DNA of 41,250 nucleotides from Actinomycetota bacterium (GCA_025963875.1 JAOPZY010000135.1:1-41250); one strand, 5' to 3'; positions 6,478 to 16,457 are shown, counted from the first letter of the stretch. Program-made: numbers and translations. Notes: generated from the letters alone by a model not told the origin.

Positions 6478-7424
6478 TCGTCGTTCTCGCAGCCCTCCTC
6501 GTCGCCGGTGGTGTCGTCGCCATCGCCTGGGGCGTCGCGTCCGGGGAGAAGGCAGGCCGTCAGTCCCTGGTCCAGCTCCTCGACCTGGAGCGGGTCGACC
6601 CGACACAGTCGCCGCAGACGCTCGTTGCCCTGATGGAGAGGGCGGGCGCCCTGGCGGACCGAGCCTTCAAGGGCACTGCCACCTCCTCCAAGCTCCAGGC
6701 GTCGCTGGCCTCCGCCGGCGTGAAGCTGCGCCCGGGCGAGTTCGGTGTGGTGTCCGCCGGCGCCGGTGTCCTGGGGGCGCTCGTCTCGTTGCTGTTCGTC
6801 CCGCTCGTGATCTCGGTTGCCATCCTGGTCGGCCTCCCCCTCGCCATCTACTTCTGGATGATCCGCAAGGGCAAGAAACGGCGGATCGCTCTCGAGAACC
6901 AGCTCCCGACGGTGCTCCAGCTCCTCGCCGGGTCGCTCGACTCGGGCGCCTCGATGCTGCACGCCATGGAGATCGTGGCCCAGGAGGGCAATGCCCCCCT
7001 GGCCGACGAGTTCGCCCGGGTGGTGATCGAGACGCAGGTGGGCCGGCCGATGCTGGACTCGCTCCAGGCAATGGCAGACCGCTGCGCCTCGCAGGACCTC
7101 GACTGGACGGTGGAGGCCATCCGCATCCAGTACACCAGCGGCGGCAGCCTCTCCGAGACACTCCGCACCCTCGCCGAGTTCATGCGGGCACGGGTGGAGA
7201 TCCGTGCAGAGGTGCGGGCCCTGTCGGCAGAGGCGCGGCTGTCCGGCAAGGTCCTCACCGGCCTTCCGCTGCTCGTCGGTGGCTTCCTCATGCTGTTCCG
7301 GCCCGACTACGTGGCGCCGCTCTACCAGACGGGGACCGGCAAGATGATGCTCGTCGCCGCCGGCTTCGGAATGCTCACCGGGACGATGTGGATGCAGCGG
7401 ATCATCAAGAAGGTGGAGGTGTAG
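6474..7424 (+). CDS. tadB: TadB, type II secretion F-like membrane protein
   Basis: T2SSF-type sequence with multiple TM helices; QLLAGSLDSGASMLHAMEIVAQEGNAPLADEFARVV; directly follows TadA (GTGA overlap). Confidence 0.9.
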   Translation: MIVVLAALLVAGGVVAIAWGVASGEKAGRQSLVQLLDLERVDPTQSPQTLVALMERAGALADRAFKGTATSSKLQASLASAGVKLRPGEFGVVSAGAGVLGALVSLLFVPLVISVAILVGLPLAIYFWMIRKGKKRRIALENQLPTVLQLLAGSLDSGASMLHAMEIVAQEGNAPLADEFARVVIETQVGRPMLDSLQAMADRCASQDLDWTVEAIRIQYTSGGSLSETLRTLAEFMRARVEIRAEVRALSAEARLSGKVLTGLPLLVGGFLMLFRPDYVAPLYQTGTGKMMLVAAGFGMLTGTMWMQRIIKKVEV

Positions 7425-8359
7425 TGGTGAGCATGATCCTGTGGTTTGGTCCGGCGACGGTCGGGGTCGGGTTAGGTTTCGTGGCAGTGGGAGTGGCCGG
7501 TCGCTCCTCCGACCGCCGGTCCAGCGCCGCGGCGCTGGAGTCCATCGTCGGCGAGGGGCTGGACAGCAGGGAGGCGGAACTCTCCGCTCCCCTGTCGCTC
7601 CGGCTCCTCGGGCCGGTCGGTCGGTCGCTCACCAGGATCGCCCGGGCGGTGACGCCCAGCACGATGGTCGCCCGGCTTCGGCAGAACACGTCGCTGGCAG
7701 GCCTCGGAGACCTCGGGGTCGAAGGTGCCCTGGCGCTGAAGGCCGCCGGTGCCGCCCTGCTGGCCGTCATCTTCCCGCTCCTGCTGGCACTCCTCGGCGT
7801 GGGCTTCGGCAACGTCATCCTGTTGGGACTCTTCGGGGCGGCCATCGGCTTCATGCTGCCCGACGTCTTCATCGCCGGCAAGGGCAAGAAGCGCCAGGCG
7901 GAGATCCGCAGGGCGCTGCCCGAGACCCTCGATCTGCTGGCGATCGCCGTCGGCGCCGGCATGGGCCTGGAGGCCGCTATCGAACTGGTCATCCAGCGCC
8001 TCCCGGGACCGTTGGGCCAGGAGTTCCACCGGATCCTGCAGGAGCTGTCGCTCGGCGTTTCCCGCCGGGAGGCGTTCGGCAACCTCCGGACACGGACCGA
8101 GGTCGAGGAACTGTCGACGTTCGCCCTGATCCTGACCCAGGCGGACGCCCTCGGCACCCCGCTGTCCGTCGTCCTCAAGAGCCAGGCGGCGGAGATGCGG
8201 ATGCTGCGCCGGCAGCGGGCGAGGGAGCAGGGGGCCAAGACCCCCGTTGCCCTGCTGTTCCCACTGCTGCTCGGAATCTTCCCCGCGCTGATGCTGATCG
8301 TCATGGGCCCCGCAATCATCTCGATCATGAAGGCCTTCGGCGCTGGGCGGGGCGTGTAG
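7424..8359 (+). CDS. tadC: TadC, type II secretion F-like membrane protein
   Basis: LPETLDLLAIAVGAGMGLEAAIELV...GPLGQEFHRILQELSLGVSRREAF...; start GTG 7424 (or ATG 7433), overlapping the tadB stop. Confidence 0.9.
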   Translation: MVSMILWFGPATVGVGLGFVAVGVAGRSSDRRSSAAALESIVGEGLDSREAELSAPLSLRLLGPVGRSLTRIARAVTPSTMVARLRQNTSLAGLGDLGVEGALALKAAGAALLAVIFPLLLALLGVGFGNVILLGLFGAAIGFMLPDVFIAGKGKKRQAEIRRALPETLDLLAIAVGAGMGLEAAIELVIQRLPGPLGQEFHRILQELSLGVSRREAFGNLRTRTEVEELSTFALILTQADALGTPLSVVLKSQAAEMRMLRRQRAREQGAKTPVALLFPLLLGIFPALMLIVMGPAIISIMKAFGAGRGV

Positions 8360-8428
8360 TCGCAAGCTCGTCTGCCCAACCGAACAACCCCATCCCGCAC
8401 GCTCTGAAAAAGGAAAGGAAGTGTCGTT

Positions 8429-8650
8429 TTGCTCGCGATCCTGCTCTTCATCAAGGACCGGTTTGCAGTTCTTCGACCCGTGGGTGAGCGGGGGGCGGCC
8501 GCCGTGGAGTACGGCCTGCTCGTCGCCCTGATCGCGGTCGCCATCATCGGCGCGGTGTTCCTGTTGGGCGGGAGGATCAACAACACCTACACGTGCGTCG
8601 GCAACAGCATGCCTACCGGCTCCTCGGCATCACCGAGCGCAAGCTGCTAA
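8429..8650 (+). CDS. Flp/Fap-type pilin 2 (TTG start)
   Basis: MLAILLFIKDRFAVLRPVGERGAAAVEYGLLVALIAVAIIGAVFLLGG...; same G|AAAVEYGLLVALIAVAII core as pilin 1; purine-rich RBS aaaaaggaaaggaag upstream. Confidence 0.9.
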   Translation: MLAILLFIKDRFAVLRPVGERGAAAVEYGLLVALIAVAIIGAVFLLGGRINNTYTCVGNSMPTGSSASPSASC

Positions 8651-8716
8651 GTCAGGAGATGTGCCGCACGAGTGCGCGCCCACGGGCGACGGCGCTCGGG
8701 CGGCCGAGCCGGGAGA

Positions 8717-8755
8717 GGCCAGCGGGACCGGGTCTGGGAACTGGTCCCGCTGGTC
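8717..8755 (+). terminator. Hairpin at the end of the Tad cluster
   Basis: CCAGCGGGACC-N13-GGTCCCGCTGG perfect 11-bp inverted repeat, extendable by G-T and G-C pairs. Confidence 0.6.
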
Positions 8756-8791
8756 GCCCTGCTGACGAGTGCGGGAAGCTATGCTCGGGCC

Positions 8792-9703
8792 ATGGAGGAT
8801 TCGCCGGCGATCGTCGCCAGAGGCCTGAAAAAGTCCTACGGCGATGTCGAGGCGGTGCGGGGCATCGACCTCCACGTTGCGAGAGGTGAGGTCTTCGCCC
8901 TGCTCGGCCCCAACGGAGCCGGCAAGACGACCACCGTCGAGATCCTCGAGGGACACCGCAAAGCCGACGCCGGCGAGGTGCGGGTCCTGGGCCACGACCC
9001 AGCCCGCCGGGAGCGGGCGCTGCTGGAGCGCATCGGCATCGTGCTCCAGGAGACGGGCATCGAGCCCTTCCTCACCGTGGAGGAGGCTATCGAGCTCTAC
9101 CGCGGCTACTACCCGCATCCGCGGCCAACCGACGAGATCCTCCACGTCGTGGGACTGGAGGAGAAGCGCAGCTCGCGGGTCAACAAACTCTCCGGCGGCC
9201 AGAAGCGCCGCCTCGACGTGGGGATCGGCCTCGCCGGCGACCCCGACCTCCTCTTCCTCGACGAGCCCACGACGGGCTTCGACCCCTCCGCCCGGCGCAA
9301 CGCCTGGCAGGTCGTGAAGAACCTCGCCGCCCTGGGCAAGACGATCGTGCTCACGACCCACTACATGGACGAGGCGCAGAACCTCGCCGACCGCGTTGCC
9401 ATCGTCGTCGGGGGCAGGATCGTCGCCGAGGGTCCTCCGGGGACGCTGGGTGGGACCGAACTCGAGCAGACCCGCATCTCGTTCTCGCTTCCCTCAGAGG
9501 CGGCGGCGCTGCCTGCCTCGTTCGGAGCAACCGCATCGGGCGCTGGCTACGTCATCGTCACCAAGGAGCCGGTCCGGGTGTTGTACGACCTGACGGGGTG
9601 GGCGCTGACCGAGGCCGTCGAGCTGGCGGACCTCACGGTCTCGAAGCCGTCGCTCGAGGACGTGTACCTGGAGTTGACAGGCGGCGTGGCGGGGACGGAG
9701 TGA
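8792..9703 (+). CDS. ABC transporter ATP-binding protein (ABC-2 type)
   Basis: LLGPNGAGKTTTVEILEG, LSGGQKRRLDVGIGLAGDPDLLFLDEPTTGFDPSAR. Confidence 0.95.
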   Translation: MEDSPAIVARGLKKSYGDVEAVRGIDLHVARGEVFALLGPNGAGKTTTVEILEGHRKADAGEVRVLGHDPARRERALLERIGIVLQETGIEPFLTVEEAIELYRGYYPHPRPTDEILHVVGLEEKRSSRVNKLSGGQKRRLDVGIGLAGDPDLLFLDEPTTGFDPSARRNAWQVVKNLAALGKTIVLTTHYMDEAQNLADRVAIVVGGRIVAEGPPGTLGGTELEQTRISFSLPSEAAALPASFGATASGAGYVIVTKEPVRVLYDLTGWALTEAVELADLTVSKPSLEDVYLELTGGVAGTE

Positions 9704-10476
9704 GCACCGCCCGACTGGCCCTGCGCCAGGTGCGCTACGAGAACAAGTCGTTCTGGCGCAACCCTGCCGCCGCCTACTTCACCTTCGCCTTCCCCATCGT
9801 GTTCCTGGTCATCTTCAACCTGCTGTTCGGCAACGCCAGGCTCACCCTGCCCGGGGGCCATATCGTCAAGCAGTCGACGTTCTACGTGGCGGCCATCGTG
9901 GCTTTCTCCGTCATCACCGCCTCGTTCACCAACCTGGCGATGAACGTGGTGTTCGCCCGCGAGCAGGGCGTCCTCAAGCGCAAGCGGGGCACCCCGATGC
10001 CGCCGCTCGCCTACCTCTCGGGCAAGATCCTGCATTCGGGCGTGATCGCGCTCCTCCTCGTGGCGATCATCATGGTCTTCGGCAAGGCGTTCTACGGCGT
10101 GAGCCTGGCGGGCAACCGCATCCCGGCCTTCCTTGCCAGCCTCGCCATCGGGGCGCTGTCGTTCTCGGCGATGGGCCTGGCGATCACGACCGTGGTCCCG
10201 AACGCCGATGCGGCGCCGGCCGTCGTCAACGCGGTGATCCTGCCGCTGCTGTTCATCTCGGACATCTTCATCCCGCTGACCACCGCCCCGAAGTGGTTGA
10301 GCACGGTGGGCAACATCTTCCCGGTCCGGCATTTCGCCGAGGCGATGCACCAGGTCTTCAACCCGTTCGCACCCGGGTCGGGCTTCCAGGGCAAGGACCT
10401 GCTCGTGATGGGGATCTGGGGCCTGGGCTCCCTGCTGGTGGCGGCCAAGTTCTTCCGCTGGGAGCCCACCCGGTAG
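9700..10476 (+). CDS. ABC-2 type transporter permease
   Basis: GTGA overlap with the ATPase gene; polytopic protein with FTFAFPIVFLVIFNLLFG...FAREQGVLKRKRGTPMPPLAYLSGKIL. Confidence 0.9.
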   Translation: MSTARLALRQVRYENKSFWRNPAAAYFTFAFPIVFLVIFNLLFGNARLTLPGGHIVKQSTFYVAAIVAFSVITASFTNLAMNVVFAREQGVLKRKRGTPMPPLAYLSGKILHSGVIALLLVAIIMVFGKAFYGVSLAGNRIPAFLASLAIGALSFSAMGLAITTVVPNADAAPAVVNAVILPLLFISDIFIPLTTAPKWLSTVGNIFPVRHFAEAMHQVFNPFAPGSGFQGKDLLVMGIWGLGSLLVAAKFFRWEPTR

Positions 10477-10486
10477 GACCTTCGAC

Positions 10487-10535
10487 CTTCTTTGGGTGAT
10501 GAACGATGCATAGCATTGATAATCACCCAAAGAAG
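10487..10535. terminator. Bidirectional terminator between convergent genes
   Basis: CTTCTTTGGGTGAT-N21-ATCACCCAAAGAAG: perfect 14-bp arms between the permease stop (10476) and the MFS stop (10538). Confidence 0.7.
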
Positions 10536-10537
10536 CT

Positions 10538-11785
10538 TCACGACGTGTGGCGCTGGGCCTTGCCGGGGTCGGGGACTTTCCGGAACTGGAGGTAGATCAG
10601 GACGTCGTAGAGGATCTTCACGCCCCCGGCGGCGAAGAAGGGGCTGCCAAGGGCGACGTGGCTCATGAGCGCACCGCCAACCGAAGGCGCGACGGGGCGG
10701 GTGAGGTACCGGGCCGTGTTCGTGTAGGCGGCGGCGGCCACCCGTTCCTCGGGGTCGACCATCGTCATCACGTAGGCCTGGCGGGCGGGGACGTCCATCT
10801 GCGAGATGGCGAAGCGGGCCATCAGGATGGCGACGGCGATGGGGAGGTTGGGTGCCAGGGGCACCGCCATCAGCGCCAGGTTGGACGGCAGGTGGCTGAA
10901 GACCATCGTGTTCAGCAGCCCGATCCTGGCGGCGATGGGGCTGGCCAGCATCGAGGACCCCGCCTGGAGGATCCCGGCCACGGAGAAGACCACCGCCAGC
11001 AGGCCGGTGGAGGCCCCCAACGCCCTGCCGAACCAGAACACCAGGAACGTCTGGGTGATGAAGCCGCCCCCGAAGGAGTCGAGAGCGAACAACACGGCCA
11101 GCTTGCGCACGGTTGCCCGCGAGCGCACGAGGGGCGCCGGCTTGCCGGGCAGCGTCGAGGGGACCGGGCCGACCTCGACGGCCGGGGAGAGGCGAGCCGC
11201 CAGCACCCGGCAGACGATCCCGATCACCGGGAACATCAGCAGCCACCACTGGTTGGCGGGCACGCCGGAGATGGCCCTCCGGAGCAGGGCGGGCAGGCCG
11301 GCGGCGAGCGAGCCCACCGACCCGGCGGCGAAGGCCACGGCGTTGTAGCGGCCGAAGGCCCGCACCCTCCGGCTGGCACGGACCCCGCCGATCATGGCCT
11401 GCTCGAGGGAGGTGATCGGCCCGGACTCGTTGGGGTCGGGCGAGAGGGTCCCGCTGAGCGCCGCGAGCAGCAGGGCCGGGAACCAGCGAGTCAGGGCGAA
11501 CACCGCCCCCGCGACACCCATCAGCGCGAGCAGCGAGCCGTACAGCCTCCGCCGGCCCACCCGCTCGCCCCACCGGCCGACGGCGACGGAGGTGAGGGCC
11601 ATCCCGGCGAGCATGGCGGTGAGGATTGCCCCCACCTGGAGGTCGGAGAGCTTGGCGGCCGCCAGCACGACGCCGAGCAGCACGCTGGCGAAGCCGTAGG
11701 CGAAGGCCCGGAGTCCCTGGATGGTGAGGATGATGCGGATGTCGCGGGGGAGCCCCGCCGCCTGCAGCTCGTCAGCGTCTGCCAT
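10538..11785 (-). CDS. MFS transporter
   Basis: Polytopic; MFS-like loop VGRWGERVGRRRLYGSLLALMGVAGAVFAL. Confidence 0.85.
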   Translation of the reverse strand: MADADELQAAGLPRDIRIILTIQGLRAFAYGFASVLLGVVLAAAKLSDLQVGAILTAMLAGMALTSVAVGRWGERVGRRRLYGSLLALMGVAGAVFALTRWFPALLLAALSGTLSPDPNESGPITSLEQAMIGGVRASRRVRAFGRYNAVAFAAGSVGSLAAGLPALLRRAISGVPANQWWLLMFPVIGIVCRVLAARLSPAVEVGPVPSTLPGKPAPLVRSRATVRKLAVLFALDSFGGGFITQTFLVFWFGRALGASTGLLAVVFSVAGILQAGSSMLASPIAARIGLLNTMVFSHLPSNLALMAVPLAPNLPIAVAILMARFAISQMDVPARQAYVMTMVDPEERVAAAAYTNTARYLTRPVAPSVGGALMSHVALGSPFFAAGGVKILYDVLIYLQFRKVPDPGKAQRHTS

Positions 11786-11857: not shown

Positions 11858-12496
11858 ATGGACGCCCGACTCGGCCAGCGGGATCTCGAGGCCCTCCGGT
11901 GGGTCGGCGAGCAGTACGCCTGCCGGCTGGACCAGCTCCAGATCCTGCTGGGGCGCCTCGGCGACCGGGGCGCACTTTCGGCATCGGCAGCTCGCTCCGT
12001 CGTCAGCCGCTGGGAGACGCTCGGCATGGCCTCCCGGGCCAGCTTCATCGCCGGCGAGCCGTCGTGGGTCTGGCTGACCCGCCGCGGCCTCCGGCAGGCG
12101 GGCCTGGCGTTCCGGGTCGTGGAGCCCAAGGCCTGGACGCTGCCCCACACCGCAGCCGTGAACCGGGTGCGCCTGTTCGTCGAACCGCGCCGTCCCGGCG
12201 CCCGCTGGCGTCCCGAGCGGGAGCTCCGGGCTGCCGGCGGTGCCGCAGGTCCCGGCGGGCCGGTGCCCGACGCAGAGATCCACGACGCGGGCGGTAACGT
12301 CATCGCCGTGGAGGTCGAGCTGTCCCCGAAGTCGCCCGCCCGCCGCCGGCGGGTCATGCAGGCGCTGGTGGCCCGCTACGACTCGCTCTGGTACTTCGCC
12401 TCCGCCGACTGCTGGGTGGCCCTCCACGACGCGGTCTGCCACGTACCGCCACAGCTTGCCGACCTCGTCCGCATCTACGCCCTGGAGGACCTCTAG
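11858..12496 (+). CDS. Replication-relaxation-like protein (winged-helix N-terminus, possible PD-(D/E)xK-like C-terminus)
   Basis: LGQRDLEALRWVGEQYACRLDQLQILLG...SVVSRWETLGMASR...WVWLTRRGLRQAGL, then VPDAEIHDAGGNVIAVEVELSPKSPARRRRVMQALVARYDSLWYF. Confidence 0.65.
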   Translation: MDARLGQRDLEALRWVGEQYACRLDQLQILLGRLGDRGALSASAARSVVSRWETLGMASRASFIAGEPSWVWLTRRGLRQAGLAFRVVEPKAWTLPHTAAVNRVRLFVEPRRPGARWRPERELRAAGGAAGPGGPVPDAEIHDAGGNVIAVEVELSPKSPARRRRVMQALVARYDSLWYFASADCWVALHDAVCHVPPQLADLVRIYALEDL

Positions 12497-13782
12497 TGCA
12501 AGCCCACGTCGGGGTCGACGGCCTCCTGGGCGCCCTGGTCTCGGGCGACCTCTTCGAATGGGGCCGCCGGGACGCGGGGCGGCTGTGGCTCGCCTATCCC
12601 GAGGCGGACCTGTCCCGGCACGGCGTGGTGGTGGGGGCGGCGGGGTCGGGCAAGACCGAGACGCTGCTGCGGCTCTCGTACCTGGCGGCGAAGGTCTACG
12701 GCTGGCACGTCGTCTTCCTCGACGCCAAGGGCGACCCCGCCACCCGGGACCGCTTCGTTGCGGCCATGCTGCACGCCGGCGTCGATGCGGCAGCGATACG
12801 GGCCTTCCCCGCCCAGCCGTACGATGCCTGGCGCGGCGACGCCAGGGCGCTGGTCAACCGCCTCATGGAGGTCTCGGACTTCAGCGAGCCCTACTACCGG
12901 GCGATGGCGCTGCGGGTCCTGGACCTGGCGACGTCGGCGCCTCCCGGGCCGCCGCGGTCGTCCGCCGACCTGCTCGGCCGCCTACGGAAGCCGGCGCTGC
13001 GGATGGCCTACCGGGGGCGGCCCGAGGCGACCGAGATCGACGACCTCGCCGAGCGGGACGTGGCGGGCGTCGCCAACCGGTACCGGGCCTTCTTCGGGGC
13101 GCTGGGCGGCTCCCTCGACGGGACCTGGGCGTTCGAGGACCCGGCAGCCTGCTACGTCCTGCTCGAGGGCCTGGCGCTGAAGGCCGAGGCGGCGCGGCTC
13201 GGCCGCTTCTTCCTCGAGGACTTCGCCCACTACGCGGGCGTCCGCAAGGAGGCGGCGCGTCGGGTGCTGCTGGTGGTGGACGAGTTCTCCGCGCTGGAGT
13301 CGACGGCCGACGCCGCCCATCTCTTCGAGCGTCTGCGGTCGTTCGGTGCGGCGGTGATCGTCTCGGCACAGGGCTACGCCGGACTCGGTGTGGCGGGGGA
13401 CCGCATCCTCGACGCCGCCCAGACGCTCGTGCTCCACCGCTGCGCGGAGCCGGAGCGCCTCATCGCCCGGGCTGGGACGGTGCCCCGCGTGGAGCACACC
13501 CGGTACCTCCCCGGGCGGGACGCCGCCGGAGGCCCTGCCGGGAGGGAGGGGGCCGTGACCCGGCGGGAGGGATGGCGGGTCCGGCCGAACGACGTCCGCC
13601 AGCTTCCCGTGGGCGAGGCCGTCGTCGTCTCGGGCGGCAAGGCGGCCCGGGTGCGCGTGGAGCGGCTCCTCCCGCCCGAGGAGCTCCTGGCCGCCGCGGC
13701 CGGGATCGCCAGCCGCGCCGGCACGTCCCGGGCGGCGCCGGTCTTCCACCCGTCTCCGCCGCCGCAGGTTCCGGGCCTGTAG
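12496..13782 (+). CDS. VirD4/TraG/FtsK-HerA-like P-loop ATPase without obvious TM anchor
   Basis: Walker A GVVVGAAGSGKTETLLRL, Walker B RVLLVVDEFSALES, VVFLDAKGDPATRDRF; GTG start overlaps the upstream stop (TAGTG). Confidence 0.75.
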   Translation: MQAHVGVDGLLGALVSGDLFEWGRRDAGRLWLAYPEADLSRHGVVVGAAGSGKTETLLRLSYLAAKVYGWHVVFLDAKGDPATRDRFVAAMLHAGVDAAAIRAFPAQPYDAWRGDARALVNRLMEVSDFSEPYYRAMALRVLDLATSAPPGPPRSSADLLGRLRKPALRMAYRGRPEATEIDDLAERDVAGVANRYRAFFGALGGSLDGTWAFEDPAACYVLLEGLALKAEAARLGRFFLEDFAHYAGVRKEAARRVLLVVDEFSALESTADAAHLFERLRSFGAAVIVSAQGYAGLGVAGDRILDAAQTLVLHRCAEPERLIARAGTVPRVEHTRYLPGRDAAGGPAGREGAVTRREGWRVRPNDVRQLPVGEAVVVSGGKAARVRVERLLPPEELLAAAAGIASRAGTSRAAPVFHPSPPPQVPGL

Positions 13783-13786
13783 CCCG

Positions 13787-14683
13787 ATGACACCGGCCGG
13801 GATCGGGCTCGTCGCCGCCTCGATCCTCCTGGACCTACCCTCCGCAATCGCCCGGCTGTTCCTGACCGCGGTCATCGCCGGGCTGGCGGGCGCGCTCGAC
13901 TGGCGGGCCGACCTCGTCGTCTTCCTCGTAGCCTTCGGCCCGTACCTGCGAAGCATCGCCGCCCTCGTCTTCCCCCTTCCGGCTGGGGCATTCCTCCGGC
14001 AGGCGGCGGGGGCGCGGAAGCCGTCGGAACGCGAACGCGCGGCCATCGGGAATGCGTTCTCGCTGCTACCCGGCGGCGCCGCCCCGGCGAGCGTCCTCGT
14101 GATCGACGGTCCGGACGAGAACGCCTGGGTGCTCGGGTGCACGCTCTTCGTCGAGCGGGGCCTCTTCGAGAGCCCCCACCTGGTGGCGGTGCTGGCCCAC
14201 GAGGCGGGCCACCTGGCCGCCGGGGACGGGCGCGTGGCCCTGGCGGCCTGGTGGCTCCCCGTTCGCTCCGCGGCTTGGGTCGCGGCCCGCCTGATCGGCA
14301 GCAGGACCGGCGGTCTGCCCCAGGCGGGCAAGACCCTCCCGCAGCCCCGGGCCGCCGGTGCGGGCGCCGGGATCCTCCCCGACCCCCGGTTCCGCGTCCT
14401 CGGCGGCCTGCTCCGGCTCCCCGGCATCGCCGCAGGCACCGTGGCGCTACTCTTCGCCGGCGGCCTGTTCCCGATGCTCCTGCGCCAGGTGTGGGCCGCC
14501 TACCGCCGCAGCCGCGAGTTCGCGGCGGACGCCTTCGCGGCGTCGGCGGGCCATGGGCCGGCGCTCGTCGAGGCCCTCGCCGAGTGGCAGGTGCTCGACG
14601 TGGCCACGCCGTGGTGGCTCCGGCTCAGCCATCCCTACGTCGAGCAGCGGATCGACCAACTTCAGCGGCTGCAAGTAGAGTAG
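13787..14683 (+). CDS. M48-family membrane metalloprotease
   Basis: HExxH motif LVAVLAHEAGHLAAGD, downstream RSREFAADAFAASAG (third ligand region), several TM helices. Confidence 0.82.
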   Translation: MTPAGIGLVAASILLDLPSAIARLFLTAVIAGLAGALDWRADLVVFLVAFGPYLRSIAALVFPLPAGAFLRQAAGARKPSERERAAIGNAFSLLPGGAAPASVLVIDGPDENAWVLGCTLFVERGLFESPHLVAVLAHEAGHLAAGDGRVALAAWWLPVRSAAWVAARLIGSRTGGLPQAGKTLPQPRAAGAGAGILPDPRFRVLGGLLRLPGIAAGTVALLFAGGLFPMLLRQVWAAYRRSREFAADAFAASAGHGPALVEALAEWQVLDVATPWWLRLSHPYVEQRIDQLQRLQVE

Positions 14684-14687
14684 GCCC

Positions 14688-15149
14688 ATGTTCGCACTCC
14701 TCCTGAGCGTGCACATCCTCGCGGCGATCATCGGGTTGGGGCCGTCGTTCTCGTTCGGTTTCCTCGGGGTCATGTCCGAGAAGCAGCCCGCCGCCGCCCG
14801 GGCCCTGCAGGAGACCATCCTCCTGATCTCGACCCGCATGGTCATCCCCCTCGTCGTGATCCTCGGCCTCAGCGGTGTGCTGCTGGTCGGCAACACCCAC
14901 GTCAACCTCAGCAAGAACCCCTGGCTGGGGGCCGGAATCGTCCTCTACGTCCTCGTGCTGGCGACGGCGATCTTCTACCAGGTACCCACCCAGAAGAAGA
15001 TCCTGGCGCTGCTCGGGCCAACCGGCGGGATGGACCAACCCGGGGTGCGCAAGCTCGCCACCGGCCAGCGGGTCGTCGGCATCTCCATGGGGCTGGCCGT
15101 TGTCGTCACCGCGGTCCTGATGATCTGGAAGCCCGGCGCCGGGTCGTAG
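14688..15149 (+). CDS. DUF2269-like four-TM integral membrane protein
   Basis: MFALLLSVHILAAIIGLGPSFSFGFLGV...ISTRMVIPLVVILGLSGVLLVG...; 4-nt gap after the M48 gene. Confidence 0.65.
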   Translation: MFALLLSVHILAAIIGLGPSFSFGFLGVMSEKQPAAARALQETILLISTRMVIPLVVILGLSGVLLVGNTHVNLSKNPWLGAGIVLYVLVLATAIFYQVPTQKKILALLGPTGGMDQPGVRKLATGQRVVGISMGLAVVVTAVLMIWKPGAGS

Positions 15150-15158
15150 CGGTTCCCA

Positions 15159-16457
15159 ATGGGCACACTGGTCCTGCTGCAGCGCATCCAGGAGCGGAAG
15201 GCCGCCGTCGCCGTCGTCGGCCTCGGGTATGTCGGGCTCCCGCTGGCCATGGCCGCGGCGGCGGCCGGCTTCGACGTCACCGGCTTCGACACCGAGGCCC
15301 ACCGGGTGGAGTCGCTGACCCGGGGCGAGTCCTACATCCTCGACATCGACGCAAGCGACCTGAACGCCCAACTGGCCGCCGGACGCTTCCACCCGACCAC
15401 GGAGCCCACATCGCTGGCCGGCGCCGACGTCATCGTCATCTGCGTGCCCACCCCGCTGCGCAACGAGCTGCCGGACATGACCTACATCGAGGAGGCCGGC
15501 AAGATGATCGCGGCGGTCCTCGCCCCGGGGCGCCTCGTGATCCTGGAGTCCACCACCTACCCGGGCACCACAGAGGAGTACCTGCGGGGCATTCTCGAAT
15601 CCTCGGGTCTGCACTGCGGTTCGGACTTCTCGCTCGGCTTCTCGCCCGAGCGCATCGACCCGGGCAACACCCGCTTCACGCTCGCGAACGTGCCGAAGAT
15701 CGTCGGCGGCATCGACGCCGACTCCACGAGCCTCATGAAGGCCTTCTACTCGGCCTTCATCGACCGTGTCGTGACGGTCTCGTCGCCCAAGACCGCCGAG
15801 ATGGCGAAGCTGCTGGAGAACACCTACCGCCACGTCAACATCGCCCTTGCCAACGAGATCGCCATCCTGTGCCACGGGCTCGGTGTGGACGTGTGGGAGG
15901 TCATCGACGCCGCGGCCACGAAGCCGTTCGGGTTCCAGCCCTTCTTCCCAGGACCCGGCTGGGGCGGCCACTGCATCCCGGTGGATCCCGCCTACCTGTC
16001 GTGGCGGGTTCGCCAGATGCACCAGACCGCCCACTTCGTGGATCTCGCCCGTGAGATCAACGACCGGATGCCGGCCTATGTCGTCGAGCGCATCGGGGAC
16101 TGCCTGAACGAGGAGGGCAAGTCGCTGAAGGGATCGAAGGTGCTGGTGCTCGGCGTGGCCTACAAGCCCGACGTGTCCGACGTCCGCGAGTCGCCGGCGC
16201 TCGCCATCATCACCCGCCTGCGCCGCAGCGGGGCCGTGGTGAGCTTCCATGACCCGCACGTGGAGTCGGTCGACCTCGACGACGGCCAGCTCGACGGCAT
16301 CGAGCTCGACGACCAGCGCCTGCGAGAGGCCGACCTCGTCGCGGTGGTCACCAACCACTCCAGCTACGCCTGGGACGTGGTGGCACGCCACGCACCGCTG
16401 ATCCTCGACACCCGCAACGCTCTCAAGGGCATCGAGGGCCGCATCGTGCGGCTTTGA
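15159..16457 (+). CDS. UDP-N-acetyl-D-glucosamine/UDP-glucose 6-dehydrogenase family protein
   Basis: VAVVGLGYVGLPLAMAAAAAGFDVTGFD, LESTTYPGTTEE, FSPERIDPGN, AEMAKLLENTYRHVNIALANE, PFFPGPGWGGHCIPVDPAYLSWR. Confidence 0.95.
   Translation: MGTLVLLQRIQERKAAVAVVGLGYVGLPLAMAAAAAGFDVTGFDTEAHRVESLTRGESYILDIDASDLNAQLAAGRFHPTTEPTSLAGADVIVICVPTPLRNELPDMTYIEEAGKMIAAVLAPGRLVILESTTYPGTTEEYLRGILESSGLHCGSDFSLGFSPERIDPGNTRFTLANVPKIVGGIDADSTSLMKAFYSAFIDRVVTVSSPKTAEMAKLLENTYRHVNIALANEIAILCHGLGVDVWEVIDAAATKPFGFQPFFPGPGWGGHCIPVDPAYLSWRVRQMHQTAHFVDLAREINDRMPAYVVERIGDCLNEEGKSLKGSKVLVLGVAYKPDVSDVRESPALAIITRLRRSGAVVSFHDPHVESVDLDDGQLDGIELDDQRLREADLVAVVTNHSSYAWDVVARHAPLILDTRNALKGIEGRIVRL

What the first reader, a model, noticed from the sequence alone, without database searches (positions are those of the whole stretch)
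11858..15149. Candidate uncharacterised operon: nuclease-like replication-relaxation protein + VirD4/FtsK-like ATPase + M48 metalloprotease + DUF2269-like membrane protein
Seen directly: four co-directional genes with overlaps or 4-nt gaps (TAGTG at 12494-12498, 13782/13787, 14683/14688). The first has a winged-helix-like N-terminus and a C-terminal VPDAEI...AVEVELSPKS motif resembling a PD-(D/E)xK core (inference). The second has Walker A/B but no obvious TM anchor or relaxase partner. The third has an intact HExxH and EFAAD motif. Established knowledge: replication-relaxation proteins and TraG/VirD4 ATPases co-occur on actinobacterial conjugative elements. Here no integrase, relaxase or att-like repeat is visible, so this may be a domesticated module or a DNA-processing/defence-like system with a membrane protease.
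Basis: partly seen in the sequence, partly recalled or inferred. Interest (0 to 1): 0.72.

Follow-up and report, generated by a model that had tools for sequence, protein, structure and literature searches.

The report
Grounded mobile-element DNA-transfer module
Three of the four genes (a DNA-cutting protein, a DNA-pumping motor without a membrane anchor, and a membrane protease) are the transfer kit of a small, apparently undescribed kind of jumping element found in soil Actinobacteria; in this lineage the kit has lost its jumping enzyme but has been kept intact in the chromosome, so it probably does a job for the cell.

Summary
In detail: four tightly packed genes at 11858-15149. Gene 1 is a winged helix plus a PD-(D/E)xK-type nuclease fold (AlphaFold pLDDT 92) distantly related to MOBC/Replic_Relax proteins. 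Gene 2 is the cytosolic part of a VirD4-type coupling ATPase with no transmembrane anchor. Gene 3 is an intact M48 metalloprotease. Gene 4 (DUF2269) is not part of the module. Genes 1-3 occur in the same order between homologous neighbours in a sister genus, under purifying selection like that on neighbouring genes. Elsewhere (mostly Solirubrobacterales) the same triad sits beside a tyrosine integrase in six of ten loci, patchily and sometimes twice per genome, as expected of compact integrative mobilizable elements. M48 adjoins all 12 anchor-less coupling proteins and none of about 44 loci of the anchored lineages. MOBC relaxase plus own VirD4 is a known IME type; the anchor-less motor with M48 is a new variant. 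Best reading: such an element's mobilization module, immobilised and retained. Its present job is inferred: moving or processing DNA, possibly through a separate chromosomal T4SS operon found in both genomes without its own coupling protein; a defence or repair role is the main rival.

The parts
11858..12496 (+). Gene 1, 212 aa: winged helix (res 7-73) plus PD-(D/E)xK-type nuclease domain (res 92-208; H97, E120/R121/R124, P137-D138, E152-x-E154, K158); MOBC/Replic_Relax-like relaxase-nuclease
   Evidence: AlphaFold pLDDT 92.4, CTD alone 90.5; Foldseek CTD best hits NucS, SfsA, EcoT38I (weak E); NCBIfam MobC_subf E 9.4e-8 and 9 of 11 homologues; conserved residues
12496..13782 (+). Gene 2, 428 aa: VirD4/T4CP-type ATPase without transmembrane domain (Walker A res 47-54, Walker B about res 258-264)
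   Evidence: Pfam TrwB_AAD_bind 1.6e-7, PDB match DotL 8.5e-7, no TM segment, tree
13787..14683 (+). Gene 3, 298 aa: membrane M48 metalloprotease, HEAGH and EFAAD intact, three TM-like segments
   Evidence: Pfam Peptidase_M48 2e-12, above cut-off; present beside all 12 TM-less gene 2 loci; motifs
14688..15149 (+). Gene 4, 153 aa DUF2269 membrane protein: neighbour, judged not part of the module
   Evidence: Pfam DUF2269 2.8e-12; no such gene between M48 and UDP-sugar dehydrogenase in G001
9598..10476 (+). ABC-2 permease, conserved left neighbour (flank marker)
   Evidence: Pfam; directly upstream of gene 1 in G001
10538..11785 (-). MFS transporter between ABC permease and gene 1, absent at this place in G001
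   Evidence: Pfam
15159..16457 (+). UDP-glucose/GDP-mannose dehydrogenase, conserved right neighbour (flank marker)
   Evidence: Pfam; homologue downstream of M48 in G001, 72%

Best explanation
Genes 1-3 are the mobilization module of a compact integrative mobilizable element (IME) family that was immobilised in an ancestor of this family: integrase, excisionase and the small regulator were lost or left behind, and the three genes were kept because they became useful to the host. Mechanism: the winged helix of gene 1 binds a specific DNA site and its PD-(D/E)xK-type centre cuts one strand (the MOBC way of starting transfer); the gene 2 ATPase, expected to be a hexamer, takes the DNA-protein complex and pumps the DNA; because gene 2 has lost the usual membrane anchor, the co-encoded membrane protease of gene 3 docks or licenses the motor at the membrane, and/or trims a channel protein. 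Shown: homology, domain composition, fold prediction, missing anchor, triad co-conservation, integrase association in relatives, synteny and purifying selection here. Inferred: strand cutting, hexamer, docking by M48, and the present-day substrate.
For: Complete triad in the same order in 11 loci, with M48 beside 12 of 12 TM-less gene 2 genes and none of about 44 loci of the anchored lineages. Integrase, mostly with a small xis-like gene, beside six of ten loci outside the window's family; tRNA-Ile overlapping the integrase 3' end in G401; full-length TM-less gene 2 in 7 of 232 genomes of one order, two copies in two of them. L212 holds regulator, gene 1, gene 2, M48, a small gene at the xis position and int in about 5.1 kb. 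Distant gene 1-gene 2 pairs lie on plasmids, on an ICE with integrase, VirB4 and lytic transglycosylase, and near VirB4 on pHAU02. Streptococcal IMEs and the few mobilizable plasmids with their own VirD4 also encode MOBC relaxases (PMC5704250). Window versus G001: same flanks, dN/dS 0.30, 0.24 and 0.44 against 0.31-0.35 for flank genes, all catalytic motifs intact.
Against: No att repeats could be found, so element borders are not defined. Only two genomes carry the fixed copy, so 'fixed' rests on one divergence. Gene 1 scores far below the curated MobC cut-off (31.6 of 200 bits) and does not hit PF13814 itself. Foldseek E-values for the nuclease domain are weak (best 1.4e-2). Anchor deletion abolishes mobilization by MobB of CloDF13 (PMC7431656), so a TM-less protein may not be a working coupling protein. 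No oriT was identified.
Confidence: 0.6

Rival explanations
1. A domesticated intracellular nuclease-translocase-protease system for defence or DNA repair, like HerA-nuclease pairs: the soluble VirD4-fold ring feeds DNA to the PD-(D/E)xK nuclease, and the M48 protease acts as a membrane sensor or effector. It would not need any secretion channel.
For: Gene 2 has no membrane anchor, the nuclease centre is intact, and gene 2 matches PADLOC mad8 (E 1.1e-13) and, weakly, HerA models.
Against: The mad8 match is stronger for the T4CP of a bona fide ICE (E 2.9e-18), so it only says T4CP-like. Genes 1, 3 and 4 hit no defence model. The flanks examined are transporters and metabolic genes. In relatives the triad sits on near-minimal integrase elements, better suited to mobility genes than to cargo.
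Confidence: 0.22
2. A non-functional remnant of an old IME that has not yet decayed.
For: Integrase, xis and regulator are gone; only two genomes hold it; relatives in other lineages include frameshifted or IS-interrupted copies (L213/L132, L216).
Against: Three intact frames in two genera, purifying selection similar to that on flank genes (dN/dS 0.24-0.44), and all catalytic motifs intact.
Confidence: 0.1
3. Gene 1 is a replication or partition protein of the excised element rather than a relaxase, with gene 2 distributing DNA at division (FtsK-like).
For: The related Pfam family is named replication-relaxation and occurs on plasmids and some phages; the winged helix resembles MarR and FtsK-gamma folds.
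Against: The pair is tightly linked to T4CP-type, not FtsK-type, ATPases: PF10412 scores above its cut-off, FtsK_SpoIIIE does not; the nuclease centre is strictly conserved.
Confidence: 0.08

Closest known systems
MOBC relaxase plus VirD4 coupling protein of CloDF13 (MobC/MobB) and of MOBC IMEs of Streptococcus
   Same: A relaxase of the restriction-endonuclease (PD-(D/E)xK) kind with its own VirD4 ATPase; mobilizable elements without a mating channel of their own (PMC7431656, PMC12857230, PMC5704250).
   Different: MobB needs its N-terminal TM domain; here it is absent, and an M48 membrane protease is added. Gene 1 shares only distant profile similarity with MobC.
Replic_Relax (PF13814) plus T4CP pairs of actinobacterial and Chloroflexota plasmids and ICEs (pHAU02, Microbacterium and Herbiconiux plasmids, ICE in G175)
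   Same: Same gene 1-gene 2 pairing, homologous in both partners.
   Different: Their coupling proteins have N-terminal TM segments and no M48 neighbour; some lie near VirB4.
mad8 of the MADS defence system (PADLOC)
   Same: Gene 2 ATPase domain (E 1.1e-13).
   Different: No other MADS part was matched by the proteins scanned; the hit is shared with an ordinary ICE coupling protein.
Chromosomal MPF_FATA T4SS of Patescibacteria (PMC12102498)
   Same: Chromosomally fixed T4SS parts with T4CP usually encoded far from virB4; compare the operon on G000 contig C105.
   Different: Most patescibacterial clusters lack a relaxase; here a relaxase-like gene is paired with the T4CP.

Membership tests
MOBC relaxases | PD-(D/E)xK (restriction-endonuclease-type) catalytic domain | tested here: met
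   AF2 models with the expected alpha/beta core and D138, E152, E154, K158 conserved; Foldseek top hits NucS, SfsA, EcoT38I but E only about 1e-2
MOBC relaxases | Score above the curated MobC family cut-off | tested here: not met
   NF041423 31.6 bits, cut-off 200; 9 of 11 homologues match at E up to 0.01
MOBC relaxases | Site-specific nicking at an oriT | not testable with these tools
   needs biochemistry; no oriT identified
Replic_Relax (PF13814) | Pfam gathering score 25.3 bits | tested here: not met
   No hit for gene 1; homologue in G366 21.9 bits on the same stretch; pHAU02 partner protein 71.2 bits
VirD4-type coupling proteins (T4CP) | Nucleotide-binding domain with Walker A/B of the TrwB/TraG kind | tested here: met
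   PF10412 31 bits, cut-off 20.5; DotL match
VirD4-type coupling proteins (T4CP) | N-terminal transmembrane domain | tested here: not met
   No TM-like segment in window, G001 or L131-L134; two or more in the anchored relatives tested
Peptidase family M48 | Pfam score above cut-off, HExxH and third ligand Glu | tested here: met
   47.8 bits, cut-off 20.3; HEAGH and EFAAD
Integrative mobilizable element | Own integrase/excisionase plus relaxase, no mating channel | tested here: not met
   Window: no tyrosine integrase by profile. Relatives: integrase present in L130, L210, L211, L212, L217, L218
Integrative mobilizable element | att repeats bounding the element | tested here: inconclusive
   No convincing repeats; integrase 3' end overlaps tRNA-Ile in L210/L134
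MADS defence system | Presence of the other mad genes | tested here: not met
   Only the gene 2-mad8 similarity among the proteins scanned

The most novel reading that the evidence does not exclude
A DNA-transfer machine in which the coupling ATPase has given up its own membrane anchor and is docked or gated at the membrane by a co-encoded M48 protease; in this lineage it has been domesticated and serves the chromosomally fixed MPF_FATA-type secretion operon (TcpC, small 2-TM protein, TcpE, VirB4, VirB6-like on contig C105; syntenic in G001), giving a two-locus chromosomal DNA exchange system.
Probability: 0.2. Interest if true: 0.82.

Novelty: new variant of a known kind. Interest (0 to 1): 0.6.

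Why it matters
It describes a compact mobilization module (relaxase-like nuclease, anchor-less coupling ATPase, membrane protease) that is poorly annotated: several homologues are 'hypothetical protein' in public records. It would extend known IMEs in Actinobacteria, where a 2017 review knew a single canonical one (PMC5704250). The consistent pairing of anchor loss with an M48 neighbour turns the question of why coupling proteins need a membrane domain into a testable one. The grounded copy is a case of a host keeping a transfer module after the element lost mobility.

Tried and rejected
Defence reading: PADLOC scan gave only mad8/HerA-like similarity of gene 2, stronger for a real ICE coupling protein. 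DUF2269 as a part: absent in G001. Direct PF13814 membership of gene 1: not met. PDB sequence search with the gene 1 profile: mostly winged-helix hits, none to a nuclease. Whole-length gene 1 Foldseek was dominated by MarR folds, so the C-terminal domain was modelled alone. Plasmid tblastn with gene 1: no match. First genome-contig scan and a viral-contig scan with the two-sequence profile: no relatives. att repeats: none convincing. A link between the pair and the C105 T4SS by co-distribution is uninformative: both occur only in the two family members within the class (24 genomes), but related operons in other families occur without this pair. The T4CPs found in three of those genomes belong to separate islands with several multi-TM transfer-like genes. 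L159 looked TM-less but is a frameshifted anchored gene. A paper search for relaxase, M48 and coupling protein together found none, within open-licence papers only.

Full report
Observation. The four frames, their overlaps and 4-nt gaps are as described, and a codon-usage caller picks the same four genes. Pfam names gene 2 (TrwB_AAD_bind), gene 3 (Peptidase_M48) and gene 4 (DUF2269), and nothing for gene 1; NCBIfam gives gene 1 a weak MobC-family replication-relaxation match. The window is a whole contig of a draft genome, G000.

Local conservation. In the class of 24 genomes the gene 2 and M48 genes occur only in G000 and its sister genus G001. In G001 the order is ABC permease, gene 1, gene 2, M48, UDP-sugar dehydrogenase; the MFS gene and the DUF2269 gene of the window are missing there. 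Identities are 68, 75 and 58% for genes 1-3 and 72-73% for flank genes; Nei-Gojobori dN/dS is 0.30, 0.24 and 0.44 against 0.31-0.35 for flank genes. The copy is therefore inherited in place and maintained, not decaying, although this rests on two genomes.

Gene 1. With ten homologues as alignment, AlphaFold gives a confident model (pLDDT 92.4): winged helix, then a long helix and an alpha/beta core. Invariant or near-invariant residues include H97, E120, R121, R124, P137, D138, A150, E152, E154 and K158. The C-terminal domain modelled alone (pLDDT 90.5) finds NucS, SfsA, EcoT38I, YaeQ, EcoO109I and Can2/Card1 nucleases or nuclease-fold proteins in the PDB, E about 0.01 to 0.4, among some unrelated folds: consistent with PD-(D/E)xK, not strong alone. 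Nine of 11 family members match NCBIfam MobC. MOBC relaxases are of the restriction-endonuclease kind (PMC12857230).

Gene 2. A VirD4-type ATPase without TM segment. Homologues in plasmids, ICEs and genomes are paired with a gene 1 homologue, usually directly upstream. On L050 (G175) the pair lies with integrase, a predicted excisionase (HTH, by sequence), lytic transglycosylase and VirB4; on pHAU02 the partner is a clear Replic_Relax and a VirB4-like gene is close by. These coupling proteins have N-terminal TM segments.

The triad. A genome scan with a broader profile found closer relatives, L130-L134 (53-38% identity): gene 1 (lost in L132), TM-less gene 2, then M48, with tyrosine integrases in L130, L133 and L134. 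A search of 232 genomes of the order of L131 found full-length TM-less genes in seven, two copies in two of them, clearly apart from weaker hits. Neighbourhoods show a recurrent order: small coiled-coil/HTH gene, gene 1, gene 2, M48, excisionase-like small gene, integrase. L212 holds all of this in about 5.1 kb; L210's integrase overlaps a tRNA-Ile. M48 adjoins all 12 TM-less genes (in L131/L218 after a gap of about 1.8 kb) and none of about 44 loci of the anchored lineages. Many of those 44 are related Microbacteriaceae, and the TM-less genes form one or two clades (a single clade is not rejected, p-AU 0.07), so the association reflects one or two events, not 56 independent ones. HExxH and the distal Glu are intact in 11 of 11 M48 proteins tested.

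Interpretation. Known IMEs and mobilizable plasmids that carry their own VirD4 also carry MOBC relaxases (PMC5704250). The triad elements fit that type, with two departures: no anchor on the coupling protein and an added membrane protease. Since some elements hold little else besides int and a small xis-like gene, the triad is most simply their transfer kit. TMD-less MobB cannot mobilize CloDF13, whereas a TcpA lacking its TMD keeps low-level transfer (PMC7431656), so another membrane partner is expected; M48, a membrane protein encoded next door, is the natural candidate. That docking role is inference.

Present-day role in this genome. Both G000 and G001 hold, at a different and syntenic chromosomal place beside lgt, an operon of TcpC-like, small 2-TM, TcpE, VirB4 and VirB6-like genes with no coupling protein or relaxase recognised there. 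Gene 2 is the only PF10412 match in G000 at E up to 0.001 (that search missed the G001 orthologue, so it is insensitive, and an FtsK/TcpA-like partner is not excluded). Together these could form a two-locus chromosomal T4SS. Related operons in other families exist without this pair, so the link is only plausible. Four of five hosts of triad elements hold a VirB4, which fits channel piracy, but no base rate for that order was measured.

Verdict. A real, conserved three-gene module of IME origin, immobilised and retained here; a new variant of the MOBC relaxase plus VirD4 type. Its function in this host is not shown.

Noticed in passing
L087 (G000 contig C105) 1-5298; L088 (G001 contig C4) 8154-13516: Syntenic chromosomal MPF_FATA-like T4SS operon (TcpC-like, 82-aa 2-TM protein, TcpE, VirB4, VirB6-like) beside lgt in both genomes, without a recognised coupling protein or relaxase.
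   Followed up: partly
L110 (G249), L113 (G172), L116 (G059): Related T4SS core operons in other families lie beside housekeeping genes (dnaK-grpE-dnaJ in G249 and G172, by sequence), suggesting chromosomally fixed T4SS in several actinobacterial lineages.
   Followed up: partly
gene 2 C-termini: L132, L133, L134, L209, L211, L212: Six TM-less coupling ATPases end in -LPF after a variable linker (L132...HIDEDLPF), recalling the SSB C-terminal tip; L131 ends -LRF, the window and G001 end -VPGL.
   Followed up: no
L213 6651-8681 (same locus as L132): M48 gene interrupted by an insertion carrying transposase-like frames; gene 1 is lost there.
   Followed up: no
L216 (G470) 6951-10756: A related element with frameshifted gene 1 and gene 2, a TM-like segment before gene 2, xis-like gene and integrase, but no M48: an anchored sister type, now broken.
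   Followed up: partly
window 10538-11785 and 14688-15149: MFS transporter and DUF2269 genes flank the triad in the window but are absent at these places in G001, so they are insertions here or losses there.
   Followed up: no
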